Shown: in pieces, positions 31,109 through 56,167 of the stretch
How positions within the stretch are numbered: the first letter of the stretch is position 1
Layout of the letters: each line of letters begins with the position of its first letter
Source: Sphingopyxis sp. L1A2A
GTDB taxonomy: Bacteria > Pseudomonadota > Alphaproteobacteria > Sphingomonadales > Sphingomonadaceae
DNA: 64,000 nucleotides
Direction of reading: 5' to 3'
Assembly (NCBI RefSeq): GCF_005502465.1
Contig: NZ_SCOT01000002.1
Coordinates: forward strand, 1-64,000
The notes under the pieces: model-generated
Told to the model about the DNA's origin: nothing
The model's input: the letters and a program-made list of their open reading frames with translations, nothing else
The model's database searches: none
Made by a program: the position numbers and the translations under genes

Positions 31109-31184
31109 TGCGTTTAGCCTAAAAAAGTAAGCCAAAAACCACGCAAAACCAATAGTTTGAGCAAGGACGAGACCTCCAAAAAGA

Positions 31185-31204
31185 CTTACACATGTCTTAC
31201 ACAT
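31185..31204. promoter_or_regulatory. Direct repeat upstream of the integrase, possible arm or operator site
   Basis: CTTACACAT occurs at 31185-31193 and again at 31196-31204, an 11-base period of about one helical turn. It overlaps the small inverted repeat AAGAC...GTCTT. It lies 16 bases before the integrase start and between the crossover site and the gene, so it may bind the integrase or a repressor. Confidence 0.4.
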
Positions 31205-31219
31205 TTTGGAGTTCTCGCA

Positions 31220-32566: not shown

Positions 32567-32651
32567 GCGGGCGTGGTGGAATTGGTAGACGCGCGGGATT
32601 CAAAATCCCGTTCCGCAAGGAGTGTGGGTTCGATTCCCACCGCCCGCACCA
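32567..32651 (+). tRNA. tRNA-Leu (anticodon CAA), carried by the element
   Basis: The 85-base gene folds as a complete class II tRNA. The acceptor GCGGGCG pairs with CGCCCGC, the anticodon stem is CGGGA/TCCCG with loop TTCAAAA (CAA), a long variable arm follows (TTCCGCAAGGAGT), the T-arm is GTGGG TTCGATT CCCAC, and CCA is encoded. Its acceptor does not match the split host gene at 31069 (GCCCCTG), so it is a separate gene and not the rebuilt host tRNA. It could replace the function lost by integration. Confidence 0.93.
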
Positions 32652-33669: not shown

Positions 33670-34773
33670 ATGCGCTGGAACTGGCAACTTCCCGACTGGC
33701 CCGATTTCCGCTTCGACGCGGACCGCATCAGTGTGTCGGAAGAGCAATTTCTGAAAGGGGCCGGTGTCGTCATTGGGGCGTTGCATCACCTCGACACCGA
33801 TGGGCGCGATGGTCTGACCATCGAACTCATTTCGCAGGAGATCGTGGATAGCTCTGCCATCGAGGGCGAAATTCTCGACCGCGCGAGCGTCCAGTCGTCA
33901 CTCGCAAGGCATCTGGGCTTTGCCGCCGATCAGCGCCGCGCCAGTGCGGCCGAGGCCGGTGCCGCCGAACTCATGGCCGATGTCTATCGCAACCATGCCG
34001 CGCCGCTTGATGACCAGACTCTGTTCGCGTGGCACGCCATGCTGATGAACGGTCGCCGCGATATTGCTGATGTCGGGCACTACCGGACGCATGAAGACGC
34101 CATGCAGATCGTCTCGGGCGCGCTTCACGCGCCGCGCGTGCATTTCGAGGCACCGCCATCCGATACCGTTCCTGCGGAAATGGCCCGGTTCATCGTGTGG
34201 TTCAACGATAGCGCGCCATCGGGAGCGGCTCCGCTTCCGGCGATCACCCGCGCCGCGATCTCGCACTTGTGGTTTGAGAGCATCCATCCCTTTGAAGACG
34301 GAAATGGCCGGATCGGACGCGCGATTTCGGAAAAGACATTGGCCCAAAACGTTGCTGCTCCGACGCTGACGGCACTCGCGGAAACGATCAATCGCCACCG
34401 CAAAGCCTACTACGCCGCGCTTCAGCTCGGAAGCCAGAGCAACGACATCGACGCCTGGCTGACATGGTTTGCCGATATTGTCATCGAGGCGCAGGCGCGA
34501 ACGATCACCCGCATCCGCTTCCTGATCGACAAGACCCGGCTGCTCGATCGCTTGCGCGGGCAAATCAACGAACGTCAGGAAATGGCGTTGCTTCGCCTGT
34601 TCCGTGAGGGACCGGACGGATTCGAGGGCGGGTTGAGCGCCGGGAATTACCGGACGATCACCGGGGCGGCGCTTGCAACTGCGACCCGCGATCTTGCCGA
34701 TCTTGTGGAGAAAGGTGCGCTGATCCGCACCGGTGAACGCCGCTATGCTCGCTACTTTCTTACGAGCAGCTAG
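33670..34773 (+). CDS. Fic family protein with N-terminal DUF4172-like domain
   Basis: The 367-residue product carries the full Fic motif HPFEDGNGRIGR with catalytic His206, the hallmark of enzymes that transfer AMP (or other nucleotides) to hydroxyl groups of proteins. Upstream, VDSSAIEGE matches the (S/T)xxxE(G/N) inhibitory helix, so activity should be self-restrained (class II). The N-terminus (MRWNWQLPDWPDFRFDADRI) is the DUF4172-type segment, and the C-terminal ~90 residues look like a winged helix (LRLFREGPDGFEGGLSAGNYRTITG...TATRDLADLVEKGAL). It precedes the defence operon by 149 bases. A link to phage defence is unproven. Confidence 0.9.
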   Translation: MRWNWQLPDWPDFRFDADRISVSEEQFLKGAGVVIGALHHLDTDGRDGLTIELISQEIVDSSAIEGEILDRASVQSSLARHLGFAADQRRASAAEAGAAELMADVYRNHAAPLDDQTLFAWHAMLMNGRRDIADVGHYRTHEDAMQIVSGALHAPRVHFEAPPSDTVPAEMARFIVWFNDSAPSGAAPLPAITRAAISHLWFESIHPFEDGNGRIGRAISEKTLAQNVAAPTLTALAETINRHRKAYYAALQLGSQSNDIDAWLTWFADIVIEAQARTITRIRFLIDKTRLLDRLRGQINERQEMALLRLFREGPDGFEGGLSAGNYRTITGAALATATRDLADLVEKGALIRTGERRYARYFLTSS

Positions 34774-34922: not shown

Positions 34923-37697
34923 ATGAATGCTGTAGAAATTGAGGAAGCAGTATCGGAACTTGCAAGCAAGCCCTTTGATCGGGCCGATTTCGCGTATCAA
35001 TTCTTAGCCGCCTTTGGGAACAAGGAGACCACCATAAAGCGCCTTCGCGCTGCGGGTGGCTCCAACGCCTCTGATGTTCCTGGCGGCATTCTTCAGCGTA
35101 ACAACATTCACTTGGCGGCGTGCGCGACGGGTGAGGTTGATGCGACGTTGAAGGCGTTGCGCGACAGTCCGAAAACGGCGTCAGCCAAGGCCAAGTTCAT
35201 CCTCGCCACCGATGGCGAGACGCTACAGGCGGAGGACGTCACCAGCGACGATCCGCCCATCGCGTGCGAATATGCCAAGTTTCCCGATCACTTCGGATTC
35301 TTCCTGCCGCTGGCGGGCATCACCACCGTCAAGCAAATCCGCGAAAGCTCATTCGACATTCGCGCCACGGGGCGGCTCAACAAGCTCTATGTCGAGCTGC
35401 TGAAAGACAATCCCGAATGGGCGACCGCCGAACGCCGACCGGACATGAACCATTTTATGGCGCGGCTGATCTTCTGCTTTTTCGCGGAGGATACCGACAT
35501 CTTCAATGGCACCGGCCTGTTTACGGCAGAGGTGCAGAAAATGTCCGAGGCGGACAGCTCGAACACGCACGAGGTCATCAGCCACATATTCCTGGCGATG
35601 AATACGCCAACGCGACATGAGGGGAAGCCTGATAACCGCTATCGGGAAGCGGCGGGAATCCGTTTGTGGGCCAACCGATTTCCGTATGTGAACGGTGGGC
35701 TGTTTTCGGGCAGCACCGAGGTTCCGCGTTTCAGCAAGATCGCGCGATCCTATTTGATCAACATCGGTAGTCTCGACTGGAAAAAGATCAACCCCGACAT
35801 TTTTGGCAGCATGATTCAGGCCGTTGCCGATGACGAGGAGCGGGGCGCACTTGGTATGCACTACACCAGTGTGCCGAATATTTTGAAGGTTCTGAACCCG
35901 TTGTTCCTCGATGACCTGCGCGGGGCATTGGAGGAGGCGGGCGACAATGGGCGTAAGCTGCTCAATCTTCGCAACCGCATGGCGAAAATCCGGGTGTTCG
36001 ATCCGGCTTGTGGCAGCGGCAATTTCCTCGTGATCGCTTACAAGGAAATGCGCGCGATCGAGGCGGTGATCAACCAGCGCCGCAATGAGGAAGAGCGACG
36101 CAGCGACATTCCGCTCACCAATTTTCGCGGCATCGAGCTGCGTGATTTCCCGGCAGAGATTGCGCGCCTTGCGCTGATCATCGCCGAATATCAGTGCGAC
36201 GTGACCTATCGCGGCCAGAAAGAAGCGCTGGCCGAACTGCTCCCGCTGAATGCGCAGAATTGGATCACTTGCGGCAATGCGCTGCGGCTAGACTGGTTGA
36301 GCATCTGCCCGCCGACCGGCACCGGCGTGAAGATTCACGGCGATGATTTGTTCAACACCCCGCTCGATCAGGTCCAGATTGATTTCGAGAACGAAGGCGG
36401 GGAAACTTACATCTGTGGAAATCCTCCGTTCAAAGGCACGCGCAAGCAAGCCGACGAGGAAAAGCGCGATCTAAACGAGGTCTTTTCAAGCCAAACGAGC
36501 AAGTGGAAAAATGTCGATTATGTAGGCGCATGGTTGATGAAGGCAGCAATCTACAATGATTCCTGCGCCGCTCCATTCGCCTTCGTAACCACCAATAGTC
36601 TCTGTCAGGGGCAGCAGGTTCCGATCACTTGGTCACTGATTTTGAAGCGCGGGTTACGAATACGGTTTGCCCATACGTCGTTCAAATGGTCCAATTTGGC
36701 TGCTAACAAGGCGGGGGTGACTGTCGTGGTCACCGGGGTTGATCGCGAACAAGGCGGCATCCGTCGAATCTACGCGGACGAGAGCGTCCGCGAGGTCGCG
36801 AACATCAATCCATATTTGACAGACCATGACATTTCCGTCGTGTCTGCCGAGAAGCGGCCTCGCGCGACAAACGTGTCAATGGAATATGGTGTTTACTACT
36901 CCAAATCGGCCGGACTGATGCTTGAATCGGCAGAAAAGACGGCGTTGCTTGCGGCCGGAGTTCCGAGCCGCTTCCTCCGGCGATTTATCGGCTCGACGGA
37001 ATACATAAACGGTAGAGAACGTTTTTGCCTTTGGATCGGTGACGACGATGTTGGGGAAATTTGCCAATTTCCTGTGGTCCGTGAACGTATCCAGAGCGTC
37101 AAGCGGGACCGGACTGAAACCGACGACGAAGCCGTCAATAAGCTTGCTGCCAAGCCTCACCAATTTCGAGAGCGCAAAGGTGGCGAAGCGTTCAAGATTT
37201 TCGTTCCGATCGTCTCATCCGAGAATCGAGAGTATTTTCCTGCCGGCGTTGCTGATGGATCTGTCATTCCAACGAACAAGGCCTTCTATATTCCTGACGG
37301 CCCGCTCTGGTCTCTCGCCGTTATCGCATCCAAAATTCACCTTGCTTGGATTGATACGATTTGTGGACGACTGCGGAATGATTTTTCATACTCGAATACG
37401 TTGGGCTGGAACACATTCCCAATTCCAACTCTGACCGAGCAAAACAAGGCTGACCTCATCCGTTGCGCGGAGGACATTCTACTTGCTCGTGAGCATTATT
37501 TCCCAGCCACCATTGCTGAGATGTATGACCCCAAGCGCATGGACTCCGAGTTTCCCCGCGTCCGCGCTGCACATGAAGCAAACGATGAGGTGCTTGAACG
37601 CATTTTTATCGGACGGCGCTTCAGGAACGATACGGAGCGGTTGGAAAAGCTGTTCGAGCTTTACACCAAGATGGCTGCGAAGGGGAAAGCGGCGTGA
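34923..37697 (+). CDS. MmeI-like class I DNA methyltransferase, first gene of the defence operon
   Basis: The 924-residue product has the MmeI-family layout. An N-terminal domain (LAACATGEVDATLKALRDSP, KFILATDGETLQAEDV), a helical spacer (FPDHFGFFLPLAGI, FMARLIFCFFAEDTDIF), and a gamma-class amino-methyltransferase core follow in order: Asp360 in VFDPACGSGNFLVIAYKEMR binds SAM and Asn500 in CGNPPF is catalytic. A target recognition domain lies at about 620-820 and a final helical part after it. MmeI itself has an N-terminal D...EXK nuclease; no such motif is clear here, so the protein probably only methylates adenine. Its stop overlaps the GTG of the next gene, which encodes a nuclease. Confidence 0.87.
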   Translation: MNAVEIEEAVSELASKPFDRADFAYQFLAAFGNKETTIKRLRAAGGSNASDVPGGILQRNNIHLAACATGEVDATLKALRDSPKTASAKAKFILATDGETLQAEDVTSDDPPIACEYAKFPDHFGFFLPLAGITTVKQIRESSFDIRATGRLNKLYVELLKDNPEWATAERRPDMNHFMARLIFCFFAEDTDIFNGTGLFTAEVQKMSEADSSNTHEVISHIFLAMNTPTRHEGKPDNRYREAAGIRLWANRFPYVNGGLFSGSTEVPRFSKIARSYLINIGSLDWKKINPDIFGSMIQAVADDEERGALGMHYTSVPNILKVLNPLFLDDLRGALEEAGDNGRKLLNLRNRMAKIRVFDPACGSGNFLVIAYKEMRAIEAVINQRRNEEERRSDIPLTNFRGIELRDFPAEIARLALIIAEYQCDVTYRGQKEALAELLPLNAQNWITCGNALRLDWLSICPPTGTGVKIHGDDLFNTPLDQVQIDFENEGGETYICGNPPFKGTRKQADEEKRDLNEVFSSQTSKWKNVDYVGAWLMKAAIYNDSCAAPFAFVTTNSLCQGQQVPITWSLILKRGLRIRFAHTSFKWSNLAANKAGVTVVVTGVDREQGGIRRIYADESVREVANINPYLTDHDISVVSAEKRPRATNVSMEYGVYYSKSAGLMLESAEKTALLAAGVPSRFLRRFIGSTEYINGRERFCLWIGDDDVGEICQFPVVRERIQSVKRDRTETDDEAVNKLAAKPHQFRERKGGEAFKIFVPIVSSENREYFPAGVADGSVIPTNKAFYIPDGPLWSLAVIASKIHLAWIDTICGRLRNDFSYSNTLGWNTFPIPTLTEQNKADLIRCAEDILLAREHYFPATIAEMYDPKRMDSEFPRVRAAHEANDEVLERIFIGRRFRNDTERLEKLFELYTKMAAKGKAA

Positions 37698-38998
37698 CCG
37701 AGGCAGTCACGCAATTTCCATCTACCGAGGAGCTTGAGAGCCTGTTCGTAAACAACGAATCTATGGCGAAGATCGAAACTCACCTTAATCGCTTCAATCC
37801 GATCAGGGTTATGAAAATGGAACGGATGGAAATCCGTCATTCGGCGATATTGAGCTGGCTTTTGAACCCGGGCGAAAGTCACGGGCTTGATGACAAATTT
37901 TTGAAAGCCTTCTTGGGTGAGGCATTGCGCGGACATAGCTCGCTTGGGTCTCCTACTGCGCTAGACATTGCACGAGCCGACTTGCGGGATTCGACCGTTC
38001 GTCTTGAATGGCAGAATATCGACATTTTCATCTACAGCGAGAAGAACGCCTGGGGATTTGTGATTGAGAACAAATTCGACAGTAAGCAGCACGAAGGGCA
38101 GTTGGCCAAATATCTGGACAGCGTTTCTGCGGGCTTGGGAAAGTTGGCGGATGATCTATCTGTCAGGGGAATATTTCTAACTCTGCATGATGAAGAGCCA
38201 GAAGATGCGCGCTACGCGCCGATAAACTATGAGGCAATTTGCCAATTTTTGCCGAGGTTCATCGGCCAAGAAGCTCATCTACTGACGGCAGAGGTGAGGA
38301 CATTCTTACAGCATTACAACGAAATTATCGCGGAGGAGGTCGGCATGAGCGCCGAGAGCAATGAGATGGAAAAGCTGGCTAGGCAGCTTTACCGCGAGAA
38401 CAAGAAGGCGCTGGACTTCATCATGGAGCATGGTGCGGGGTCAGATTTCGCCATTGCGGCTGAAGACGTTTTTGGCGACGGTCGGGATCATCTCGATGTC
38501 ATCGAGATTGACGGGCATAAATATCGATTCTGCCATTTGGACCATAAAATGGTCAGTTTTCTTCCCGAAAGCTGGTTTTTGGCGCTTGGAAAAGACGAGT
38601 ATGACTGGAAGGGCTGCGAGCAGTGGTGGTCAGGATACCCGCTGATTTCATGGCTTCAACTTTGGGCTGATGCCGACGGGACATCGGGGCAGTTAGGCTT
38701 GTATGGCGAGGTCGGTCCGCTGAAGGAGTATGAATTCAGAAGCAGTCTAATCAACGCAATTCAGAGCGCCGGAGAGAACCTGCCTAAAAATCGTATAAAG
38801 TTTCATAAGGCCGCTGCCGACGAAGGCAAGCAATACTCGAAATTCCTGAAAGAGAACTTTCTGAAAATCAAAGATGTGCAGGATGCAGAAGAGATTGCTG
38901 AAGGTATGAAGAAACTTCTCCAACGGTTCCAACCGGAATTTGACGGAATAGGCAGTATTCTGACCGAATTCAAAAAATATGGCTATGTTGACAAATGA
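37694..38998 (+). CDS. PD-(D/E)XK nuclease family protein
   Basis: The 434-residue product has a PD-(D/E)XK core of the PDDEXK_4 type: EIRHSAILSWLLNPGESHGLDDKFLKAFL, then Asp110 in NIDIFIY, Glu125-Asn-Lys127 in VIENKFDSKQHEGQLAKYLD and the conserved Gln after it. The C-terminal half (about 230-434) is mixed alpha/beta with no recognised domain. It should cut or nick DNA; target choice may come from the methyltransferase or helicase. The GTG start overlaps the upstream stop (GTGA) and its stop overlaps the next ATG (ATGA). Confidence 0.83.
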   Translation: MTEAVTQFPSTEELESLFVNNESMAKIETHLNRFNPIRVMKMERMEIRHSAILSWLLNPGESHGLDDKFLKAFLGEALRGHSSLGSPTALDIARADLRDSTVRLEWQNIDIFIYSEKNAWGFVIENKFDSKQHEGQLAKYLDSVSAGLGKLADDLSVRGIFLTLHDEEPEDARYAPINYEAICQFLPRFIGQEAHLLTAEVRTFLQHYNEIIAEEVGMSAESNEMEKLARQLYRENKKALDFIMEHGAGSDFAIAAEDVFGDGRDHLDVIEIDGHKYRFCHLDHKMVSFLPESWFLALGKDEYDWKGCEQWWSGYPLISWLQLWADADGTSGQLGLYGEVGPLKEYEFRSSLINAIQSAGENLPKNRIKFHKAAADEGKQYSKFLKENFLKIKDVQDAEEIAEGMKKLLQRFQPEFDGIGSILTEFKKYGYVDK

Positions 38999-41121
38999 CG
39001 ACTTCTAAACCCATCCCCGCAGTGTCATTCCAGACCGCGCGCACCGGGGCATCGGCCAAACCCAATGAAATGGGTATGCGCCAGATGCAGGAGCGTGCCT
39101 ATGCCAAGCGCGGCGAGCAATATTTGCTGATCAAATCGCCGCCCGCATCGGGCAAGTCGCGCGCGTTAATGTTCATCGCGCTCGACAAGCTCCACAATCA
39201 GGGCGTCAAACAGGCAATCATCGTCGTGCCGGAAAAGAGCATCGGCGGCAGCTTTGCCGATGAGCCGCTTTCAAAGTTCGGTTTCTGGGCTGACTGGACG
39301 GTCAAGCCGCAATGGAATCTGTGCAACGCACCTGGCCCCGATGAAGAACGCGTTGATCCATCCAAGGTGCGCGCCGTTGGGCAGTTCCTCGCCAGCGATG
39401 ACAAGGTGCTGGTTTGCACCCATGCGTCTTTCCGCTTTGCGGTTGAGCAGCTTGGTATCGAGGCGTTTGACAACCGCCTGATCGCGGTGGACGAGTTCCA
39501 CCATGTTTCCGCGAGCGCCGACAACAAGCTAGGCAGCCAGCTTGGCGACTTCATCCACCGCGACAAGGTGCATCTTGTCGCCATGACCGGCAGCTATTTC
39601 CGGGGCGACGCCGTTCCCGTCTTGATGCCCGAAGATGAGGCGAAATTCGAGACTGTAACCTACACCTATTACGAGCAGCTCAACGGCTATGAGTATCTGA
39701 AATCGCTCAATATCGGCTATTTTTTCTACACGGGCCGCTATCTGGGCGCGATAGAGGCCGTGCTTGATCCATCGCGCAAAACCATCGTGCATATTCCTTC
39801 GGTCAATTCGCGCGAAAGCACGAAGGACAAGATCAAGGAAGTCGAAGAGATCATGGAGTATCTCGGTGACTGGAAGGGTGCCGATCCCGTGACCGGCTTC
39901 CATCTGGTCGAGCTGCCCGCCGATGAAAATGGGAACGTCCGCACGGTCAAGATCGCCGATCTCGTGGACGACAGCGATCAGGTAAAGCGCACGAAGGTTC
40001 TGGCGGCTCTGAAAGATCCGGCGCACAAGAATGACCGCGACCATGTGGATATCATCATCGCGCTTGGCATGGCAAAGGAAGGCTTCGACTGGATTTGGTG
40101 CGAACATGCGCTGACCGTGGGCTATCGCTCCAGCCTGACCGAGATCATTCAAATTATCGGTCGTGCCACCCGCGATGCGCCGGGCAAGGAAGTGGCGAGC
40201 TTCACAAATCTGATCGCGGAACCCGATGCGTCCGAAGCCGCCGTGGTCGACGCGATCAATGACACGCTCAAAGCCATCGCGGCGAGCTTGCTCATGGAGC
40301 AGGTGCTGGCGCCGCGTTTCAATTTCACCCCGAAAGACCACGGACCGCTGCCTGACTTCAAATATGAAGGCGGGTATCAGGAAGGGCAAACGAACGTAGG
40401 TTTCAACGAAGAACGCGGACAGTTCCATTTCGAGATCAAAGGACTTGTGACGCCCAAGAGTCCCGAGGCAACCCGCATTTGCGCTGAAGATTTGAACGAG
40501 GTTATCACCGCGTTCGTGCAGGATAAGTCCGCTCTTGAGCGCGGTTTGTTCGATGGTGCGCACGTTGGCGGCGAAACATTGGCGGAAGAACTGACCCAGC
40601 TAAAAATGGGTAAGATCGTGCGGGATCGTTACCCTGAATTATCAGGTGAAGATCAGGAAGCGGTGCGGCAGCACGCCGTCGCGGCGTTGAACCTGACCCA
40701 GAAGGCCAAGCAGCTTGCGGGCAGCGGTGATACTGGAGCAGGCCACATTGATGATGGGGAGGCCCGGTCCAATACAGCGTTGATCGAGGGCGTTCGCAAA
40801 TTTGCGATTGAGGTGAAAGACCTCGATATTGACCTGATCGACAGGATCAATCCGTTTGAGGCAGCCTATTCTGTTCTCGCCAAGGCGATGAACGAGGGGA
40901 CGTTGAAGCAGGTTGCCGCTGTGATCGGCAAGCGCAAGGTCAGCATCCCCTACGAGGAAGCCCGCGACCTGGCGGTCCGCGCGTTGCAGTGGAAAAAGGA
41001 ACGTGGGCGCGCTCCTGAGATCACTTCGCAAGATCCTTGGGAAAAGCGCCTTGCCGAAGGCGTTGCCGCCCTCGCGAAATTCCGCGCGCAGCAGAATGCT
41101 CAAGAGTCTGACAATGGTTGA
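38995..41121 (+). CDS. DEAD/DEAH-box helicase (superfamily 2)
   Basis: The 708-residue product has SF2 helicase motifs: Walker A in IKSPPASGKSRA (Lys54), motif II VDEFHHV (Asp166), motif III-like MTGSY, and motif VI QIIGRATRD. The layout resembles the motor subunits of type I/III restriction enzymes but lacks a nuclease domain of its own. About 250 C-terminal residues are probably a partner-binding part. Together with the PD-(D/E)XK protein it could form a translocating nuclease. The ATG overlaps the upstream stop. Confidence 0.88.
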   Translation: MTTSKPIPAVSFQTARTGASAKPNEMGMRQMQERAYAKRGEQYLLIKSPPASGKSRALMFIALDKLHNQGVKQAIIVVPEKSIGGSFADEPLSKFGFWADWTVKPQWNLCNAPGPDEERVDPSKVRAVGQFLASDDKVLVCTHASFRFAVEQLGIEAFDNRLIAVDEFHHVSASADNKLGSQLGDFIHRDKVHLVAMTGSYFRGDAVPVLMPEDEAKFETVTYTYYEQLNGYEYLKSLNIGYFFYTGRYLGAIEAVLDPSRKTIVHIPSVNSRESTKDKIKEVEEIMEYLGDWKGADPVTGFHLVELPADENGNVRTVKIADLVDDSDQVKRTKVLAALKDPAHKNDRDHVDIIIALGMAKEGFDWIWCEHALTVGYRSSLTEIIQIIGRATRDAPGKEVASFTNLIAEPDASEAAVVDAINDTLKAIAASLLMEQVLAPRFNFTPKDHGPLPDFKYEGGYQEGQTNVGFNEERGQFHFEIKGLVTPKSPEATRICAEDLNEVITAFVQDKSALERGLFDGAHVGGETLAEELTQLKMGKIVRDRYPELSGEDQEAVRQHAVAALNLTQKAKQLAGSGDTGAGHIDDGEARSNTALIEGVRKFAIEVKDLDIDLIDRINPFEAAYSVLAKAMNEGTLKQVAAVIGKRKVSIPYEEARDLAVRALQWKKERGRAPEITSQDPWEKRLAEGVAALAKFRAQQNAQESDNG

Positions 41122-42328
41122 TCTGTCCGACGACGAATTGCTCGCCGAACTTGGTGTTAGCGTCGAGCAACAGGCTGCACGCGCCTATACTCCGCAGCAG
41201 GAGCGGATCATCGCGGGCTTTGAGGACATTCTCAAATTCCACGATGCGCATGGTCGAGCGCCGCAGCACGGTGAGCAGCGCGACATATTCGAGCGACTTT
41301 ATGCAGTGAGGCTCGATCGCCTGCGCGAGCTGGAGGATTGCCGTTCGCTGTTGGCAGGCTTTGACAAGCATGGTTTGCTGAAGGTGAACTCGGATGCCAG
41401 CCACATCGTTCCCGATGAGCTGGATGATGATGCGTTGCTTGCTGAACTCGGCATTGATCCTGGCGGTGATGATGACATCACGCAGCTTCGCCATGTGCAA
41501 ACACGGGAAGAAAGGCAGGCCGCCGAAGAGATTGCCAACCGTGAACGCTGCATCGATTTTGCGAAATTTCAGCCGCTGTTTGCCGATGTGCAGCTCGACC
41601 TTGATTCCGGCGTTCGCAGCACCCGCCCTTTCGTAAAGGACGCCGGATTTCTGAAAGCCGACATTGGCACGGGCCAATTTTTCATCCTGGGCGGCCAGAC
41701 AGCCTATGTGGCTGAGGTTGGCGAGACCATTAAGGCCCCAAATGGCGAGTTCGACGCCCGTTTAAGGGTCATCTATTCCAATGGGACGGAGAGCAACCTG
41801 TTGCGCCGCTCCCTGCAACGCGCGCTTTACAAGGATGACGCAGGGCGGCGCATTACCGATCCAGCGGCGGGGCCGCTCTTCTCTGACAATGCGGGCAAAG
41901 ACGACACCGAAAGCGGGACCATCTATGTCTTGCGGAGCAAGTCCGACCATCCCCAGATCGCCAAGCACCGTGACCTGATCCACAAGATCGGCGTGACGGG
42001 TGGCAGTGTTACGACGCGCATTGCGGCAGCGGAGAACGACGCGACCTATCTGCTGGCCGGCGTCGAGATCATCGCCGAATACAAGCTGTTCAACATCAAC
42101 CGGACGAAGCTGGAAAAGCTGATCCACCGATTTTTCGCTGATGCCGCATACGACATCCAAATTACTGATCGCTTTGGTAGGCCTGTGCGACCCCGCGAGT
42201 GGTTTCTCGTCCCGCTCTATGCGATCGATGAGGCTGTTGAACGAATACGAGACGGATCGATTGCGCTGTATATGTATGACCCAAAACACGCACGTTTGGT
42301 TCAGCGAGAATTAGGCGCGCAAGCCTGA
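41114..42328 (+). CDS. GIY-YIG nuclease family protein (T5orf172/MUG113-like domain)
   Basis: The 404-residue product starts in the last codons of the helicase gene (eight-base overlap). The N-terminal half is acidic and helical with repeated SDDELLAELG and DDDALLAELG segments. The C-terminal part GTIYVLRSKSDHPQIAKHRDLIHKIGVT (Tyr271, then the IG pair), AEYKLFNINRTKLEKLIHRFF and the DRFGRPVRPREWFLV tail match the T5orf172/MUG113 variant of GIY-YIG nucleases. It is probably a DNA nickase or nuclease. Its stop and the drt3a ATG share one base (TGATG). Confidence 0.83.
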   Translation: MVDLSDDELLAELGVSVEQQAARAYTPQQERIIAGFEDILKFHDAHGRAPQHGEQRDIFERLYAVRLDRLRELEDCRSLLAGFDKHGLLKVNSDASHIVPDELDDDALLAELGIDPGGDDDITQLRHVQTREERQAAEEIANRERCIDFAKFQPLFADVQLDLDSGVRSTRPFVKDAGFLKADIGTGQFFILGGQTAYVAEVGETIKAPNGEFDARLRVIYSNGTESNLLRRSLQRALYKDDAGRRITDPAAGPLFSDNAGKDDTESGTIYVLRSKSDHPQIAKHRDLIHKIGVTGGSVTTRIAAAENDATYLLAGVEIIAEYKLFNINRTKLEKLIHRFFADAAYDIQITDRFGRPVRPREWFLVPLYAIDEAVERIRDGSIALYMYDPKHARLVQRELGAQA

Positions 42329-43674
42329 TGCTCGATCAAATGTTCACCGCGGAAAACTTCCGTCGTATTTATGATTCAGAGAATCGCAAAGGCCTTGATC
42401 TGGCCACTCGCTACTTCCCGGATCTCGAACCGCACACGCTCGCTGTGCGCGACAAGGTGCAGGATATTCGTGATCTGCGCAAAATCGAAATTACGCTGAC
42501 GGCAGATGATTTCGAGGCACAGCTGCTCGCCTTGAAAGGCGAGCTAGCAGTCTTGAAGATAGCAAAATCATCTGCGGTTGATGCACTGATGGAGGAGATC
42601 AGCCAAAAGGTTCTCAAGCGAACCTTCAAGATCGACCTGTCGCAGAAGGTCGGGCCACAGGGAAAGCCGGTCTACTGCATCGATGCGGAGCCCGAGACGT
42701 TCTTCGTCATCAAGCAGCTCCAGCGAAACATCCACCGCATCTACGGTGTGAAACAGGCGAACCGCCACGACTTGGTGTGCCAGCTTCGGGACATGCTCGG
42801 CAGCAGCTTTCCTTTCGAGCTGGTTCGCACTGACATTTCGTCGTTCTATGAGAGCGTCGACCGCAAGCAGCTGGTGGAGAAACTGGACCAGGACCAGCTT
42901 CTGAGTCCGGCGTCGAAGAAATACATCAAGCAAGTGCTGGATTCTTACGGCGCGATTTCCGGCACCGCGATCGGCATCCCCCGTGGTGTAGGTATCAGCG
43001 CCTATCTGGCCGAGCTTTATCTGCGTCCCGTCGACAAAGCGATCAGGGCAATTCCCGGCCTCGTCCTCTATTGCCGATTCGTCGATGACATCGTGGCCGT
43101 GTTCGCACGACCGCCCGCAGGTAAAAGCCTTGGTTCATTCAAAGACCTGATCATTGCGATTTTCGTCGAAAATGCGCTCACACACAACGCCGCAAAAACC
43201 GCAGAATTCAAGCTCCCGGACACGGCTTCCCAGGAGTTCGAGTATCTGGGTTATCGCTTTACGTGCATCGGCGATAAGTTCGCGGTTTCTCCGAGCGTTG
43301 CAAAGGTGGAAAAATATCGTGCGCGAATGAATGTCTCGTTTGACGACTATTGGCACGAGCGTCCGGTGAACCCAAAAGGGGCTTTTCGCAAGCTGGTCGG
43401 ACGGGTCAAGTTTTTGACTGGTAACACTCGGCTTGCCAACAGCAAGTCCCGTGCGGTTACGGGCATCTATTACAACAACTCAATCGTGACCGACCTGTCG
43501 GATTTTGAACAGCTCGATAAGGAGCTGAAAGTCCTCGTCACAGCGACGAAGCGCACGACCCTGCAAAAGCAGTTGAAGAAGCTCAAATTCACTACCGGCT
43601 TCGTGCAACGCCGGTATCACAATTTCAGTACGAGAGAGTTGCAGATGATCGTGAGGGCCTGGAAGCATGGCTAA
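42328..43674 (+). CDS. drt3a: Antiviral reverse transcriptase Drt3a-like (UG3)
   Basis: The 448-residue product is a reverse transcriptase: motif A VRTDISSFYESVD with Asp169, motif B GIPRGVGISAYLAELYL, and motif C YCRFVDDIVAVF with Asp253-Asp254. The ~100 N-terminal and ~130 C-terminal residues do not match retron or group II intron domains. The pairing with a second, larger reverse transcriptase fits DRT type 3 (UG3 plus UG8), a phage defence system that makes DNA with an associated RNA. In reported DRT3 systems Drt3a copies an ACACAC tract in the RNA to poly(GT). It is coupled to the upstream and downstream genes. Confidence 0.83.
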   Translation: MLDQMFTAENFRRIYDSENRKGLDLATRYFPDLEPHTLAVRDKVQDIRDLRKIEITLTADDFEAQLLALKGELAVLKIAKSSAVDALMEEISQKVLKRTFKIDLSQKVGPQGKPVYCIDAEPETFFVIKQLQRNIHRIYGVKQANRHDLVCQLRDMLGSSFPFELVRTDISSFYESVDRKQLVEKLDQDQLLSPASKKYIKQVLDSYGAISGTAIGIPRGVGISAYLAELYLRPVDKAIRAIPGLVLYCRFVDDIVAVFARPPAGKSLGSFKDLIIAIFVENALTHNAAKTAEFKLPDTASQEFEYLGYRFTCIGDKFAVSPSVAKVEKYRARMNVSFDDYWHERPVNPKGAFRKLVGRVKFLTGNTRLANSKSRAVTGIYYNNSIVTDLSDFEQLDKELKVLVTATKRTTLQKQLKKLKFTTGFVQRRYHNFSTRELQMIVRAWKHG

Positions 43675-45739
43675 GCGGCGCGTCTCTCTCACGCACCGAA
43701 AGCAGCGTTCTGTCCTCACCGACATGCTGCCTTTCGAGGTGCCGCCGACTTTTTCCAACCGGGGCTATTACCGGTTTCTGCGAGACAACAGTGTCGAGAT
43801 TGAAAATGGCCATTTGCGCTGGATCAGCAAAACCGACGTCCTTGATCGTACAATGCGCCTTCTGTTCGGAGTTTTGCCCAGCGCAGGGATCGCGGAAGAG
43901 ACCCTGACCGAATGGGGCAAGGAAAAAACCCGCAGGTTCGTGCCCCTCAACAAATGCCAGATGGCGACGATCCCTTTCAATTTCCGGGTCGCGCACAATC
44001 TCGACGGGCGCACGTTGAGCGTCGTGCATCCGCGCAATCAGGTTGCGGTAGCGAGCTTTTACGCCACCCACAGCGCGCTCATCATTTATCACACGTCGGT
44101 CAGCGAGTTTTCGATCCGCCGACCGGTGTCGGTGTCTCGCTACGCCTACTTCAAGGACAAACTCCACGAAGAGCGGCTGGATTCCGTGGCGGGTGTGGAG
44201 GAGGAGGACCGGGAGTACGAGCAGCTCGGCTCCTATTTCGTGTACCGGAAATACCGAAACATCCATCGCTTTTTCGAATCCTACAAATATCACCGCAGCG
44301 AGAAAAAATACGACGCGATGGTGCAGATCGACGTGAGTAAGTGCTTCGACAGCATCTACACCCACTCGCTGCCTTGGGCCGTTTTAGGCAAGGACCAGAC
44401 AAAGTTCAGCCTCGAAGAATCGAAGGGCACTTTCGGCGGACACTTCGACGCCCTCATGCAGGGCCTGAATCATAAAGAGACCAATGGCATTGTGATCGGT
44501 CCCGAGTTTTCACGGATTTTTGCCGAGATCATTTTGCAATCGGTCGATGCCGAGCTGATCAAACAGTTGGCCGAAGGGGCCAACCTGAAACACAAGGTCG
44601 ATTACGAGATTTTCAGGTACGTCGATGACTTCTTCGTTTTCTACAACGAGGAGTCGACCCAGCTAAAGATTTTCGAGACGCTCCAGGAAATCCTCAAGGG
44701 CAGGAAGCTCAGCATCAACACGGCGAAGATCAAGCACTACCAGAAGCCGATCATCACCGAGATCACGGTCGCGAAAGAGCGCGTCTCGATGCTGCTGAAC
44801 GACGAGATCAATCCGGTTTGCGAGGAGGAGCCGCCGGCCGATCCGGCCAAGCCGCCGAAACAGAAGCTCGTGTGCGGCATCAACGCGAACCGGCTGATCA
44901 TTCGTTACAAAGCCGCCATCAAGGAGACAGGCGTCACCTATGGCGACCTGCTAAATTACACATTCGCGATTATCGAAAACAAGGTCGAGAAGCTATTCAA
45001 GGCCTTTGTTGCGAGCGACAAGTCAGACCGCGACCGTAAGCGTCTCTCCAATGCGTTGCTGGCGATCTTGGAGTTTGCCTTCTTCGCCTATTCGGCGAGC
45101 CCGAAGGTTAATCACACCATCCGCATTTGTCGGATGATCGCGACCTCTGTGGACTTCCTGCACGCCCAGAATTTACCCTACGAACAGAAGCACCTGCTGT
45201 TCAAGTATGTCCACGACAACGTGATGCAGCAGCTTGAAAAGAACACGATGAGCGTCCATCGCGAGGTCGAAAGCCTCTATCTGCTCATCTCGCTCTCGCA
45301 GATCGGTCGCGAATATTGGATGCCGGTCTCCGTGCTGCTCCGACACTTTCTGATCACGGAGGAGGAGGGCACGGGGGACTACATACGTCCTACCGGGTTC
45401 ATGAACCATTTTTCGGTCACGATCCTACTGTCCTATATAAAGGACAAGGTCAGGTATGCGAAGCTGAAAACCTTCATCGAGGGGCATATCATCGCCAAAC
45501 TCGAATACATGAAGGCCCATTGTCCGAACGACGCCGAAACGCTTATCATGCTGCTCGATCTCGTCGTATGTCCTTACATCAGTGCCACCACCAAGAATGC
45601 CATAGGACTCATTTTCGGACTGGACGCGGTGGGTCTCGCGTCAGTCAAATCCGCAAACGATCACTGGTTCACTGCCTGGGGCGATAAGTTCGATCTCGGC
45701 AAGGAGCTGGACGCGAAGCGCAGTCGTGAGGTATACTGA
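43667..45739 (+). CDS. drt3b: Antiviral reverse transcriptase Drt3b-like (UG8)
   Basis: The 690-residue product starts inside the end of drt3a (eight-base overlap). Motif A is QIDVSKCFDSIYTHSL with Asp222, motif B GIVIGPEFSRIFAEIIL and motif C FRYVDDFFVFY with Asp320-Asp321, so the polymerase centre is intact. A long helical C-terminal region (about 400-690) follows, as in the larger partner of DRT3. In reported DRT3 this protein makes the complementary poly(AC) strand without a nucleic acid template. The candidate non-coding RNA lies right after its stop codon. Confidence 0.83.
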   Translation: MAKRRVSLTHRKQRSVLTDMLPFEVPPTFSNRGYYRFLRDNSVEIENGHLRWISKTDVLDRTMRLLFGVLPSAGIAEETLTEWGKEKTRRFVPLNKCQMATIPFNFRVAHNLDGRTLSVVHPRNQVAVASFYATHSALIIYHTSVSEFSIRRPVSVSRYAYFKDKLHEERLDSVAGVEEEDREYEQLGSYFVYRKYRNIHRFFESYKYHRSEKKYDAMVQIDVSKCFDSIYTHSLPWAVLGKDQTKFSLEESKGTFGGHFDALMQGLNHKETNGIVIGPEFSRIFAEIILQSVDAELIKQLAEGANLKHKVDYEIFRYVDDFFVFYNEESTQLKIFETLQEILKGRKLSINTAKIKHYQKPIITEITVAKERVSMLLNDEINPVCEEEPPADPAKPPKQKLVCGINANRLIIRYKAAIKETGVTYGDLLNYTFAIIENKVEKLFKAFVASDKSDRDRKRLSNALLAILEFAFFAYSASPKVNHTIRICRMIATSVDFLHAQNLPYEQKHLLFKYVHDNVMQQLEKNTMSVHREVESLYLLISLSQIGREYWMPVSVLLRHFLITEEEGTGDYIRPTGFMNHFSVTILLSYIKDKVRYAKLKTFIEGHIIAKLEYMKAHCPNDAETLIMLLDLVVCPYISATTKNAIGLIFGLDAVGLASVKSANDHWFTAWGDKFDLGKELDAKRSREVY

Positions 45740-45744
45740 CTCCG

Positions 45745-45895
45745 GCGCTCCGCTTTACCCTTAATGGCTGTTGGCAGCCTACACACAAGCGCCCTCTCTT
45801 CCCCTATATCAATTGGGGGTTGGGTAATTGGGCGGTAGGAGCGGGCCGTCCCACCCAAAACTGGCAGGATAGATGAAATCTTTTTGGTCAGTGGA
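45745..45895 (+). ncRNA. Candidate DRT3 non-coding RNA with ACACA template bulge
   Basis: This non-coding stretch follows drt3b. CCTAC (45778-45782) can pair with GTAGG (45835-45839) and CGCCC (45790-45794) with GGGCG (45830-45834). On the right strand the two stems are contiguous; on the left they are split by ACACAAG (45783-45789), leaving the template-like tract as a bulge. A hairpin GCTG-TTGG-CAGC precedes it, and CCAAAA...TTTTGG (45855-45887) could close the 3' end near a T-run. The ACACAC template reported for DRT3 RNA fits. The ends are guesses, and the fold was made by eye. Confidence 0.6.
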
Positions 45896-52752: not shown

Positions 52753-54429
52753 ATGTCGAAGGAAATGGTTCTCCGGAATGGGAATGTCGCCGGCATACCG
52801 GCGGCGCAGTACATTCGCATGTCTACTGAGCATCAGCGATATTCTCCTGACAATCAAAAAGCCGCTATCGCATCGTTCGCCGACGCGCGCGGATTTGAGG
52901 TCGTTAAAACCTATCTCGACGCGGGCAAAAGCGGTCTCTCTCTTGCGAGGCGCGATGGCCTGAAACAACTGCTCAGCGATGTCATCTCGGGAGAGATCAA
53001 CTTTCGTGCTATTTTGGTTCTCGACGTTAGTCGCTGGGGTAGGTTTCAGGACACTGACCAAGCGGCGCATTACGAATATCTGTGCCGCGAAGCGGGAGTA
53101 CAACTCCACTACTGCGCGGAATCATTCGAGAATGACGGCGGCGCCATCTCGTCGATCGTCAAACATATGAAGCGAGTCATGGCGGCAGAATATAGCCGCG
53201 ATCTCTCCGCTCGCATTTCGCGTGCCCAACGGCAGCAGGCTAAGCTCGGTTTCAAGATGGGCGGAATGGCTCCGTACGGCACCCGGCGCCAAGTGGTCGA
53301 CGAAAGCGGAAAGCGTCGAATGACGTTGAAGCCCCGCCAGCGAAAGGCGCTCAGCACTGATAAAGTAATCTACGCCTTGGGACCGCCGGCCGAGGTCGAA
53401 GTGGTGGAGAGGGTTTTTCGCGACTACGCGATCCGCAGAAAGAAAATGACCGAGATCGCGCGTTGGCTCAACGACGAGAAGCGCAAGCATCCGATGCGCG
53501 AGATTTGGACACCCGACATCGTGCGATGCATGCTGAAGAACGAAATATACATCGGCACCCTTGTCTTCGGCCGCCGCTATATGAACCTCGGTCGCACTAT
53601 TAGGTTCGACGAGAAGGACTGGATCAGGGTCGCAGTGGTCCAGCCCGCCGTGTCGGTTCAACTCTTCGAAGCCGCGGCGCGGCGATTGAAGCGCTCCGCA
53701 GCCTCCAAGAGGCCGTTATCGATGCAGGAACTTACTGAGGGGTTGGCTCGCCTATATGAGGAAAAAGGGAAGCTATCCCACGCGATCATAACGAAATGTC
53801 GCTACCTCCCTGTGCCGTCCGTTTTTGCCCGCCGGTTCGGATCGCTCGAAGCAGCCTATACCGCGGTAGGTTTTACTCCGCAGCGTCATTTTCAGATCAA
53901 CGAGGCTGGCCTGCCATTCAGCGACGAAGAGCTGCTTGATCAGATCCGGAGAATCCACCGCGAGCAAGGTCGGCTCACCATCGACCTCATAGACAAAGAC
54001 CCTTTGGTACCGAGCCGCTCGTACTTTATCGCACGCTTTGGCGGTTTTCGAAACATTGTCCGCCTCGCTGGCTTGCCAATACCGCCGCGGTCGCAGCGCG
54101 ACGTGGCAGGAGAGGCAAGGCAGCGCGCCCTTTATGAAACGAAGGCAAACCGAAAGGCGCCCTGTAGCCGGAACGAGGATGGTAAGAAGTTCACCAACGA
54201 GCAGATAGTCAGCAAACTTAAGTCGCTGCTTGCTGAGAAGGGATATTTGTCGCGCCCTTTGATCAATGCGGATGGTCGCGTACCGATGAGCCATGCGGTT
54301 GCACTCAGGTTCAACGGGATGCTCAATGCGTACGCCGCTGCAGGATACTATTCGACGCAGAGTCAGGTTAACAAGGCGGCGATGGCGCGCGCGATGGGAA
54401 CATGGGTCTCGCCATTTTTACGATCATGA
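52753..54429 (+). CDS. Large serine recombinase 1
   Basis: The 558-residue product has a resolvase domain (AAQYIRMSTEHQRYSPDNQ with nucleophile Ser24; LVLDVSRWGRF; ARISRAQRQQAKLGFKMGG) and a recombinase domain (EIARWLNDEKRKHPMREIWTPDIVRCMLKNEIYIG). The C-terminus then carries three repeats of ~50 residues, each ending like RFGSLEAAYTAVGF, RFGGFRNIVRLAGL and RFNGMLNAYAAAGY. These look like homing-endonuclease-associated repeats rather than the usual zinc-ribbon/coiled-coil part. GGAGG precedes the ATG. It is paired with a paralogue 52 bases downstream. Confidence 0.87.
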   Translation: MSKEMVLRNGNVAGIPAAQYIRMSTEHQRYSPDNQKAAIASFADARGFEVVKTYLDAGKSGLSLARRDGLKQLLSDVISGEINFRAILVLDVSRWGRFQDTDQAAHYEYLCREAGVQLHYCAESFENDGGAISSIVKHMKRVMAAEYSRDLSARISRAQRQQAKLGFKMGGMAPYGTRRQVVDESGKRRMTLKPRQRKALSTDKVIYALGPPAEVEVVERVFRDYAIRRKKMTEIARWLNDEKRKHPMREIWTPDIVRCMLKNEIYIGTLVFGRRYMNLGRTIRFDEKDWIRVAVVQPAVSVQLFEAAARRLKRSAASKRPLSMQELTEGLARLYEEKGKLSHAIITKCRYLPVPSVFARRFGSLEAAYTAVGFTPQRHFQINEAGLPFSDEELLDQIRRIHREQGRLTIDLIDKDPLVPSRSYFIARFGGFRNIVRLAGLPIPPRSQRDVAGEARQRALYETKANRKAPCSRNEDGKKFTNEQIVSKLKSLLAEKGYLSRPLINADGRVPMSHAVALRFNGMLNAYAAAGYYSTQSQVNKAAMARAMGTWVSPFLRS

Positions 54430-54481
54430 GACCTTCTCGCATCGATTAGCGTTGCCACGCTGAGGGAGAAGGAGTGGCCTG

Positions 54482-56167
54482 ATGACTGAGAACCTACCAG
54501 CGTCGCCGATACCGGTCGCGCAATATTTGCGCATGTCCAGAGATCATCAGCGCTATTCGATCAGGAATCAGGCGCGTGCGATCTCGGACTACGCCGCGCA
54601 GCATCACTTCGAGATCGTGAAGACCTACACCGATCCCGGCGAGAGCGGCCTGACCTTGAGGCAGCGCCCGGGACTTCAAGCATTGCTAGCCGATACGATG
54701 AAGCCGATCCGCTCCTTCGCCCGAATCTTGGTCCTAGATGTCAGCCGTTGGGGGCGGTTTCAAAACCTAGACGAGAGCAGCCATTACGAGTTTATATGCC
54801 TCGAAGCTGGGGTGCCGATTATCTATTGTGCGGAGCCCTTTGAAAACGACGGCACGCCGGTCATGATGCTGCTGAAACAGATCAAGCGACTGCAAGCTGC
54901 GGAGTTTAGCCGGGAGCTATCTGAAAAAGTAATTTACGCACAGCTTCTACAAGCGAAGATCGGCCACAAAATTGGCGGCCCCCGCCGGTACGGTTTCGAC
55001 CGAATGCTCGTCGATCAGCACGACAGGCCGATCCAGAAATTAAAGCGCGGCGAAACGAAAGCTCTGAACTGCCAGCGCGTCGTTTATGTCAGAGGTTCGG
55101 ACCAAGAGGTACAGGTAATTCGCGACATTTTCGCCTGGTTTACGCGCGACCGCATGAGCATGAAAGGGATCGCAGAGCGCCTGACCAATATGGAAATTCC
55201 TGCTGGCGATCGAGATGTCTGGAGCGCAAACATAGTGCGCCGCATTCTTTCTGACGAACTTGTATTGGGCATTTATGTCTTCAATCGGACGACGCAAAGA
55301 TTGAAGAGCAAGATGCGTCGGAACCCGCCCGAAGCTCTGATTAAGACCAAGGTGACCGAGCCAATCATCAGCCGGGTTCAATTTGCATCGGCTGCACAAC
55401 GGTTGCGCATAAGACGGCGCAAAGTTCCTCGGGAGGAAAATTTGGCGGCCGTGTCCCGCCTGTTGCGCAGCAAAGGGTACCTCACCGGACGGTTGATCGA
55501 CCAATGCCTTTACACCCCGAGCACGACCGTCCTCAGGCGGCAGTTCGGAAGTATGGCCGAGGTCTACAGACAGTTGGGTTATGTCACAAAGGATCGCTGG
55601 TGTCCGCGCGGTGGCATGGGTCCTTCATCAAAGAACGAAATCCTCGCCCAGCTGCGTCGCCTCCATGATCGTCTCGGCTATGTAAATGAGCACATAATCA
55701 ACGAACATCCCGATGTTCCCAGCTGCAGCGTCCTCCAGCGGCATTTTGGCAAGTTGACTGAGGCATATCGGCTTGCCGGGATTCCATTCGGTCGCACAGA
55801 ACTGCAACGTATGGGTCACGAGCGATGGATGGCCAAAAGAGCCGGCGAAACCCCTCGTGAAACGATCGCCCGCCGATGGCCCGAACTGGCTAGCCGATTC
55901 AGCGACGACGATTTGCTCGAATGTCTCCGTCGGCTTCAAAAGGAACATGGGTATGTGACGGCGCAAATCATTCGTGACGATGAGCTTTCGCCCACACCCC
56001 AACTCTTCACTACGCGTTTCGGCTCGCTCCTGAATGCTTACGCAAGCGCAGGCTTAGAAAACCGTCGGTCCAAAATTTGGAGCAGGGCCGCAACAGCGCA
56101 ACATGCAGTACGAAGGGCTCATCGCGCGGATGCAAAGGCCAACGATCAAGGCAACACCGCCGGATGA
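54482..56167 (+). CDS. Large serine recombinase 2
   Basis: The 561-residue paralogue of the preceding gene has VAQYLRMSRDHQRYSIRNQ with Ser19, LVLDVSRWGRF, and a recombinase domain (GIAERLTNMEIPAGDRDVWSANIVRRILSDELVLG). It has the same three C-terminal repeats (QFGSMAEVYRQLGY, HFGKLTEAYRLAGI, RFGSLLNAYASAGL). GGAG lies before the ATG. The two proteins share layout but are clearly diverged, so they may act as a heteromeric pair to move their own DNA or the element. Confidence 0.87.
   Translation: MTENLPASPIPVAQYLRMSRDHQRYSIRNQARAISDYAAQHHFEIVKTYTDPGESGLTLRQRPGLQALLADTMKPIRSFARILVLDVSRWGRFQNLDESSHYEFICLEAGVPIIYCAEPFENDGTPVMMLLKQIKRLQAAEFSRELSEKVIYAQLLQAKIGHKIGGPRRYGFDRMLVDQHDRPIQKLKRGETKALNCQRVVYVRGSDQEVQVIRDIFAWFTRDRMSMKGIAERLTNMEIPAGDRDVWSANIVRRILSDELVLGIYVFNRTTQRLKSKMRRNPPEALIKTKVTEPIISRVQFASAAQRLRIRRRKVPREENLAAVSRLLRSKGYLTGRLIDQCLYTPSTTVLRRQFGSMAEVYRQLGYVTKDRWCPRGGMGPSSKNEILAQLRRLHDRLGYVNEHIINEHPDVPSCSVLQRHFGKLTEAYRLAGIPFGRTELQRMGHERWMAKRAGETPRETIARRWPELASRFSDDDLLECLRRLQKEHGYVTAQIIRDDELSPTPQLFTTRFGSLLNAYASAGLENRRSKIWSRAATAQHAVRRAHRADAKANDQGNTAG

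What the first reader, a model, noticed from the sequence alone, without database searches (positions are those of the whole stretch)
45745..45895. Candidate DRT3 non-coding RNA with an ACACA tract as a one-sided bulge between stems
Just after drt3b, CCTAC pairs with GTAGG and CGCCC with GGGCG. The right strand is continuous while the left is split by ACACAAG, which leaves the tract unpaired. Reported DRT3 systems use an ACACAC template in an associated RNA for poly(GT) synthesis by Drt3a. Position, sequence and fold all fit, and nothing else explains this stretch.
Basis: partly seen in the sequence, partly recalled or inferred. Interest (0 to 1): 0.87.

Follow-up and report, generated by a model that had tools for sequence, protein, structure and literature searches.

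The report
DRT3 antiphage template RNA, fold corrected

Summary
The stretch is the non-coding RNA of a complete, ordinary DRT3 system (drt3a 42328-43674, drt3b 43667-45739). Both proteins pass NCBIfam's Drt3a and Drt3b equivalog cut-offs. All 63 other DRT3 loci read carry ACACAC downstream of drt3b, and it is invariant in all 44 aligned RNAs. CCTAC/GTAGG and CGCCC/GGGCG are not conserved (68% of cells paired, covariation no better than shuffled); a chance match of that shape occurs in 7% of shuffles. The supported fold is P1 GGCGCU/AGCGCC enclosing the template, P2 GGCUG/CAGCC just 5' of it, P3 and P4, plus a pseudoknot CCGCU/AGCGG joining the 5' linker to the P4 loop. This fold pairs in 98% of cells; the pseudoknot pairs in 100% and covaries (0 of 20,000 partner swaps as good). 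The template is UACACACA (45780-45787), longer than described. New details: the drt3b codons GTA-TAC-T form a -10-like TATACT. The rare codon GTA is kept in 30 of 31 relatives (4 expected), and the spacing to P1 is constant, so the RNA probably starts at 45744. It is a new member of a published system; pseudoknot and promoter are refinements.

The parts
42328..43674 (+). drt3a, RNA-templated reverse transcriptase of DRT3 (448 aa, FVDD active site)
   Evidence: NCBIfam NF041747 equivalog, 408 bits against cut-off 200; PADLOC Drt3a 5.7e-122; matches Drt3a chain 9z6y_A, E 2e-25
43667..45739 (+). drt3b, protein-templated reverse transcriptase of DRT3 (690 aa)
   Evidence: NCBIfam NF041748 equivalog, 723 bits against cut-off 350; PADLOC Drt3b 1e-200; E24, R115, R283, Y690 and YVDD match E22, R71, R241, Y666 and YVDD of EcoDRT3b
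45708..45713 (+). -35-like TGGACG inside drt3b (18-base spacer); inferred
   Evidence: promoter scan, 3 sites found against 0.5 expected; the codon stretch D-A-K-R-S-R-E-V is the most synonymously conserved 8-codon stretch of the gene
45732..45737 (+). -10-like TATACT formed by the last codons of drt3b (GTA TAC TGA); inferred promoter of the RNA
   Evidence: Val codon GTA in 30 of 31 relatives against 4.1 expected; TATAYT visible; constant 4-nt spacing from stop codon to P1 with variable sequence
45744..45852 (+). DRT3 non-coding RNA, about 109 nt; 5' end inferred from -10 spacing and P1, 3' end from P4
   Evidence: alignment of 33 relatives, covariance model hits
45744..45749 (+). P1, 5' strand GGCGCU
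   Evidence: pairs with 45788-45793; 95% of cells paired, double changes at 3 pairs
45750..45754 (+). pseudoknot, 5' strand CCGCU
   Evidence: pairs with 45840-45844; 100% of cells in 44 sequences, 4 of 5 pairs with double changes; partner-swap test 0 of 20000
45766..45779 (+). P2 hairpin GGCUG-UUGG-CAGCC, directly 5' of the template
   Evidence: 100% of cells paired
45780..45787 (+). single-stranded template UACACACA (core ACACAC 45781-45786)
   Evidence: core invariant in 44 of 44 aligned RNAs; present downstream of drt3b in every locus read
45788..45793 (+). P1, 3' strand AGCGCC
   Evidence: as P1 5' strand
45796..45824 (+). P3 hairpin (45796-45798 with 45822-45824; 45801-45806 with 45814-45819)
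   Evidence: 97% of cells paired, 8 of 9 pairs with double changes
45830..45851 (+). P4 hairpin GGGCGGU-AGGAGCGG-GCCGUCC
   Evidence: 100% of cells paired, 6 of 7 pairs with double changes
45840..45844 (+). pseudoknot, 3' strand AGCGG in the P4 loop
   Evidence: as pseudoknot 5' strand

Best explanation
45744-45852 encodes the non-coding RNA of a DRT3 antiphage system. Drt3a holds the RNA with the loop U45780-A45787 in its active site and copies ACACAC over and over into poly(dGdT). P1 on the 3' side and P2 on the 5' side bound the template; running into P2 would end a repeat, and the pseudoknot between the 5' linker and the P4 loop locks the fold around the template. Drt3b makes the complementary poly(dAdC) without a nucleic-acid template, using E24 and R283 as nucleotide gates and Y690 as primer. 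Shown here: the genes, the conserved template, helices and pseudoknot by covariation, the catalytic and gate residues, and selection on synonymous sites at the end of drt3b. Inferred by homology: the two products and their role in defence. Inferred from sequence: the RNA's own promoter (TATACT overlapping the last codons of drt3b, start at 45744) and the roles given to P1, P2 and the pseudoknot.
For: Both genes pass the Drt3a and Drt3b equivalog cut-offs. The RNA follows the drt3b stop in the window and close relatives. A model from 33 close RNAs finds it in distant loci (33-44% identical Drt3b) at the same place, E 3e-11 to 0.01, and only once in the window's genome, E 1e-32. ACACAC is invariant in 44 of 44. 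P1-P4 plus pseudoknot pair in 98.1% of cells, 25 of 32 pairs with double changes, 140 double-change cells against 26.5 shuffled; slid versions reach 49%. The pseudoknot was not used to build the alignment and pairs in 100%; over 12 lineages own partners score 186 against 118 +/- 10 for swapped, 0 of 20000. Gate, primer and catalytic residues are invariant in 46 Drt3b. Experimental DRT3 biology: PMC13174585. Promoter.
Against: No RNA or activity was measured. The single-sequence energy minimum of the window's RNA (-45.2 kcal/mol) is another nested fold in which the pseudoknot strands extend into a long helix replacing P1 and P4; the conserved nested helices alone score -39.7, so a conformational switch is not excluded. 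The whole stretch folds no better than shuffles (z -1.1). P4 has no U-run after it here, so the 3' end is uncertain. DRT3 has not been tested experimentally in this clade in any paper I could read.
Confidence: 0.9

Rival explanations
1. One reading: CCTAC/GTAGG and CGCCC/GGGCG form one continuous-right-strand helix that bulges out ACACAAG.
For: The strings are complementary in the window, and part of CGCCC/GGGCG has about 0.78 probability in the single-sequence ensemble.
Against: Not kept in relatives (68-73% of cells, no covariation beyond shuffles). It uses bases that covary with other partners in P1 and P4, it hides the first AC of the template, and such a pattern arises by chance in 7% of shuffles.
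Confidence: 0.02
2. The RNA has no promoter of its own and is cut from the drt3a-drt3b transcript; the GTA-TAY conservation reflects something else, such as translation termination or RNA processing.
For: Consensus promoter matches are weak evidence. In some distant clades the codon is GTT or GTC (L033, L035, L047).
Against: GTA is fixed in 30 of 31 close relatives although it is the rarest Val codon of the gene. It is also kept in several more distant clades (L034, L036, L037, L059, L069). TATAYT lies exactly 7 bases before the first base of P1 at constant spacing, while the 4 bases after the stop vary.
Confidence: 0.25
3. The pseudoknot strands and P1/P4 form alternately, as a two-state switch, rather than together.
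For: The single-sequence minimum extends the CCGCU/AGCGG pairing into a long helix that excludes P1 and P4.
Against: P1, P4 and the pseudoknot each covary and are geometrically compatible (linker next to P1, 8-base P4 loop). The extension into P4's 5' strand is not conserved: relatives with GGCAG break it.
Confidence: 0.2
4. An ordinary transcription terminator or operon 3' end, with the AC tract incidental.
For: In Bacteroidota and a few other loci P4 is followed by a run of T and may also terminate transcription.
Against: ACACAC is invariant while its surroundings vary, in loci from several phyla. The window's P4 has no T-run, and the scan finds no plus-strand terminator here.
Confidence: 0.01

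Closest known systems
DRT3 of Escherichia coli (EcoDRT3; Wang et al. 2026, PMC13174585; Deng et al. 2026 as described in PMC13314766; PDB 9z6y, 9z6z, 26cz)
   Same: drt3a-drt3b order, RNA downstream of drt3b, ACACAC in a loop next to a stem-loop, DRT3b gates E22, R71, R241, priming tyrosine and YVDD.
   Different: Distant relative (Drt3b matches 26cz_A only at E 1e-70). Drt3a here has FVDD where the 9z6y Drt3a has YVDD. The priming tyrosine is the very last residue, whereas EcoDRT3b Y666 is next to last. The pseudoknot and the promoter inside drt3b are not mentioned in the texts I could read.
DRT10 and DRT9 (class 2 DRTs with a template RNA)
   Same: A cis-encoded RNA with a short template copied repeatedly (PMC12632851 and PMC13174585).
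   Different: Single-RT systems with other templates; no Drt3b partner. Family scores here are far below those for Drt3a.
Drt3 loci on a Sphingopyxis contig (L002) and other proteobacterial contigs
   Same: Drt3b 91% identical in L002 and 78-90% in most other close loci; RNA nearly identical.
   Different: Neighbouring genes differ; the RNA has C rather than U before ACACACA in most.

Membership tests
DRT3 | Drt3a (UG3) reverse transcriptase | tested here: met
   NF041747 equivalog above cut-off; PADLOC Drt3a
DRT3 | Drt3b (UG8) reverse transcriptase directly downstream | tested here: met
   NF041748 equivalog above cut-off; genes overlap by 8 bases
DRT3 | Non-coding RNA downstream of drt3b with ACACAC template in a loop | tested here: met
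DRT3 | Drt3b residues for alternating dA/dC addition (E22, R241) and R71 | tested here: met
   E24, R283, R115 by alignment to 26cz_A and in 46 homologues; R71 is not universal in more distant loci (N in L058, T in L064)
DRT3 | Drt3b priming tyrosine (Y666) and YVDD | tested here: met
   Y690 is the terminal residue; YVDD at 318
DRT3 | Poly(GT)/poly(AC) DNA products and phage defence | not testable with these tools
   needs expression and sequencing
DRT3 | 6:6:6 Drt3a:Drt3b:RNA complex | not testable with these tools
   no structure of this complex was made

The most novel reading that the evidence does not exclude
The codons that end drt3b, including the one for the DNA-priming tyrosine, double as the -10 element of the template RNA's own promoter. 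RNA supply would then be set independently of the enzymes, and a pseudoknot that spans the template loop (linker with P4 loop) would be a universal, previously undescribed core of DRT3 RNAs, perhaps acting like the template-boundary or pseudoknot elements of telomerase RNA.
Probability: 0.5. Interest if true: 0.5.

Novelty: new member of a known kind. Interest (0 to 1): 0.38.

Why it matters
DRT3 is a recent and unusual discovery: one enzyme copies an RNA while the other makes the complementary strand with no template. A 2026 review (PMC13314766) lists as open how widely DRT3 occurs and whether subtypes make other repeats. In the loci read here, all related by Drt3b similarity and coming from several phyla, the RNA template (ACACAC) is unchanged, and so are both protein gates wherever they were checked, so no subtype with another repeat was seen. 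The covariation-supported fold with pseudoknot and the predicted start site give exact positions to mutate.

Tried and rejected
Rfam at gathering thresholds finds no RNA family here (only tRNA-Leu), so no Rfam 15 family covers the RNA at that threshold. Single-sequence folding was misleading. A first pseudoknot count was off by one column and was redone. A naive hairpin picker misassigned P4 in several loci, including the window; the swap test still favoured own partners (0 of 2000), and was repeated on 12 lineages where P4 was placed correctly. One count failed on string length and was repeated. An extra weak model hit at 53130-53210 (E 1.7) lacks the template and is chance. A blastn search of the RNA in plasmids found nothing. 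Gate residues of L057 and L063 were not checked (script limit); both have ACACAC. The idea that the upstream restriction, helicase and GIY-YIG genes belong to DRT3 was dropped: helicase and GIY-YIG relatives are found in only 5 of the loci.

Full report
What was claimed.

Check of the observation. The strings are present at the stated place. The alternating tract is one step longer than described, U45780 then ACACACA 45781-45787. The fold alone would not be evidence; the case rests on comparison.

The genes. 42328-43674 and 43667-45739 are Drt3a and Drt3b by NCBIfam equivalog cut-offs (408 against 200 and 723 against 350 bits), PADLOC, and the solved DRT3 proteins (9z6y_A; 26cz_A and 9z6y_H). 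From the alignment to 26cz_A and the residue roles in PMC13174585, E24, R115 and R283 correspond to E22, R71 and R241; Y690 corresponds to the priming Y666. These and YVDD are invariant in 46 Drt3b. In more distant loci E22 and R241 persist where checked, R71 does not always.

The RNA. Drt3b relatives were fetched (51 loci, 33-91% identical) together with two viral contigs, three plasmids and eight loci from other genomes, a few of them the same species twice. Downstream of drt3b every locus read holds ACACAC or longer. In the close group it lies at a fixed place after the stop codon. Thirty-three close RNAs were aligned (A1), folded and made into a covariance model (R1). R1 finds one place in the 3.7-Mb genome, the window's (E 1e-32), and finds distant loci not used to build it, each at the end of drt3b.

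The fold. RNAalifold and pair counts support P1 (45744-45749/45788-45793) enclosing the template, P2 (45766-45770/45775-45779) directly 5' of it, P3 (45796-45824) and P4 (45830-45836/45845-45851). Reading the distant loci suggested a fifth helix: the linker after P1 (CCGCU 45750-45754) with the P4 loop (AGCGG 45840-45844), a pseudoknot. On A1 it pairs in all 33 sequences. On 44 sequences aligned by a model that did not contain it, it pairs in 100% of cells with double changes at four of five pairs; the whole structure pairs in 98.1% with 140 double-change cells against 26.5 shuffled. In a partner-swap test over 12 lineages own partners score 186 against 118 +/- 10, 0 of 20000 swaps as good; examples are CCGUC/GACGG, UCAUGU/ACAUGA, CCAGUCA/UGACUGG, CCAACCA/UGGUUGG. 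Caveat: the energy minimum of the window RNA alone is a different nested fold, so a switch between states is possible, though the extension it needs is not conserved.

How it is made. The promoter scan found TGGACG-18-TATACT ending on the first base of the stop codon. TATACT is spelled by the codons GTA TAC T(GA), for V689, Y690 (the priming tyrosine) and the stop. GTA is the rarest Val codon in these genes, yet it is used at this place in 30 of 31 close relatives, against 4.1 expected (sd 1.8). The highest synonymous conservation of any 8-codon stretch in the gene is here, at D-A-K-R-S-R-E-V. The four bases between stop codon and P1 vary freely in sequence but not in number. The simplest reading is a promoter that starts the RNA at 45744, the first base of P1. 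This is inference; it needs 5' RACE. The 3' end is taken as the end of P4; in Bacteroidota and a few other loci P4 is followed by a T-run and may also be the terminator, but not in the window.

Mechanism. Published work on the E. coli system shows that Drt3a copies ACACAC of the RNA into poly(dTdG), Drt3b makes poly(dCdA) from its tyrosine without a nucleic-acid template, both are needed for defence, and aberrant reading into the stem-loop next to the template ends products (PMC13174585). All parts needed are present and conserved here, so the same mechanism is by far the likeliest. P2, directly 5' of the template, is the element the enzyme would run into.

Novelty. The system and its RNA are known; this is a new member. 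The texts of PMC13174585 and PMC13314766 were searched for some of the terms at issue: neither a pseudoknot nor a promoter of the RNA was found in the first, and the one promoter passage in the second concerns DRT2. The Deng et al. paper was not found in the library, and its 9z6y structure may already show the pseudoknot.

Distribution. Drt3b is found in 2 of 398 genomes drawn from the phylum, the window's own included, and in 8 of 199 of its family. The operon is lower in G+C (0.54) than the sequence after it (0.61-0.65), consistent with horizontal gain.

Noticed in passing
34923-42325: A block of defence-type genes upstream of drt3a: MmeI-like type IIG restriction enzyme, PDDEXK_4 nuclease (PADLOC candidate PDC-S26), a DEAD/ResIII-type helicase and a T5orf172 (GIY-YIG-like) protein. 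Helicase and GIY-YIG relatives lie near drt3 in 5 other loci (L002, L012, L020, L037, L039), and MmeI-like pieces in three of these (L002, L012, L037), so they may be a recurrent neighbour module.
   Followed up: partly
32567-32651: tRNA-Leu(CAA) next to a possible integrase-like ORF (31157-32506, weak Phage_int_SAM_3 match below cut-off), perhaps the edge of an integrated element; no long direct repeat was found between 31500 and 52000.
   Followed up: partly
52753-56167: Two large serine recombinases in tandem, each with an HNH_repeat (homing-endonuclease-associated) domain at its C-terminal side.
   Followed up: no
42328-43674: The catalytic motif of Drt3a is FVDD in this window and many close relatives but YVDD in most distant ones and in the 9z6y Drt3a.
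   Followed up: no
L031:6001-8073 and L051:6001-6432: drt3b appears frame-shifted in Paenalcaligenes (L031, 9 in-frame stops) and at the end in Acidithiobacillus (L051), yet the RNA is intact in both.
   Followed up: no
L039, L044, L045, L046, L048, L050, L056: In several Bacteroidota loci and in the Zymomonas plasmid the template lies 70-140 bases after drt3b, with extra sequence between P1 and the template; P1 and ACACAC are kept.
   Followed up: partly
33670-34773: Fic/DOC-family protein with DUF4172 just upstream of the restriction genes.
   Followed up: no
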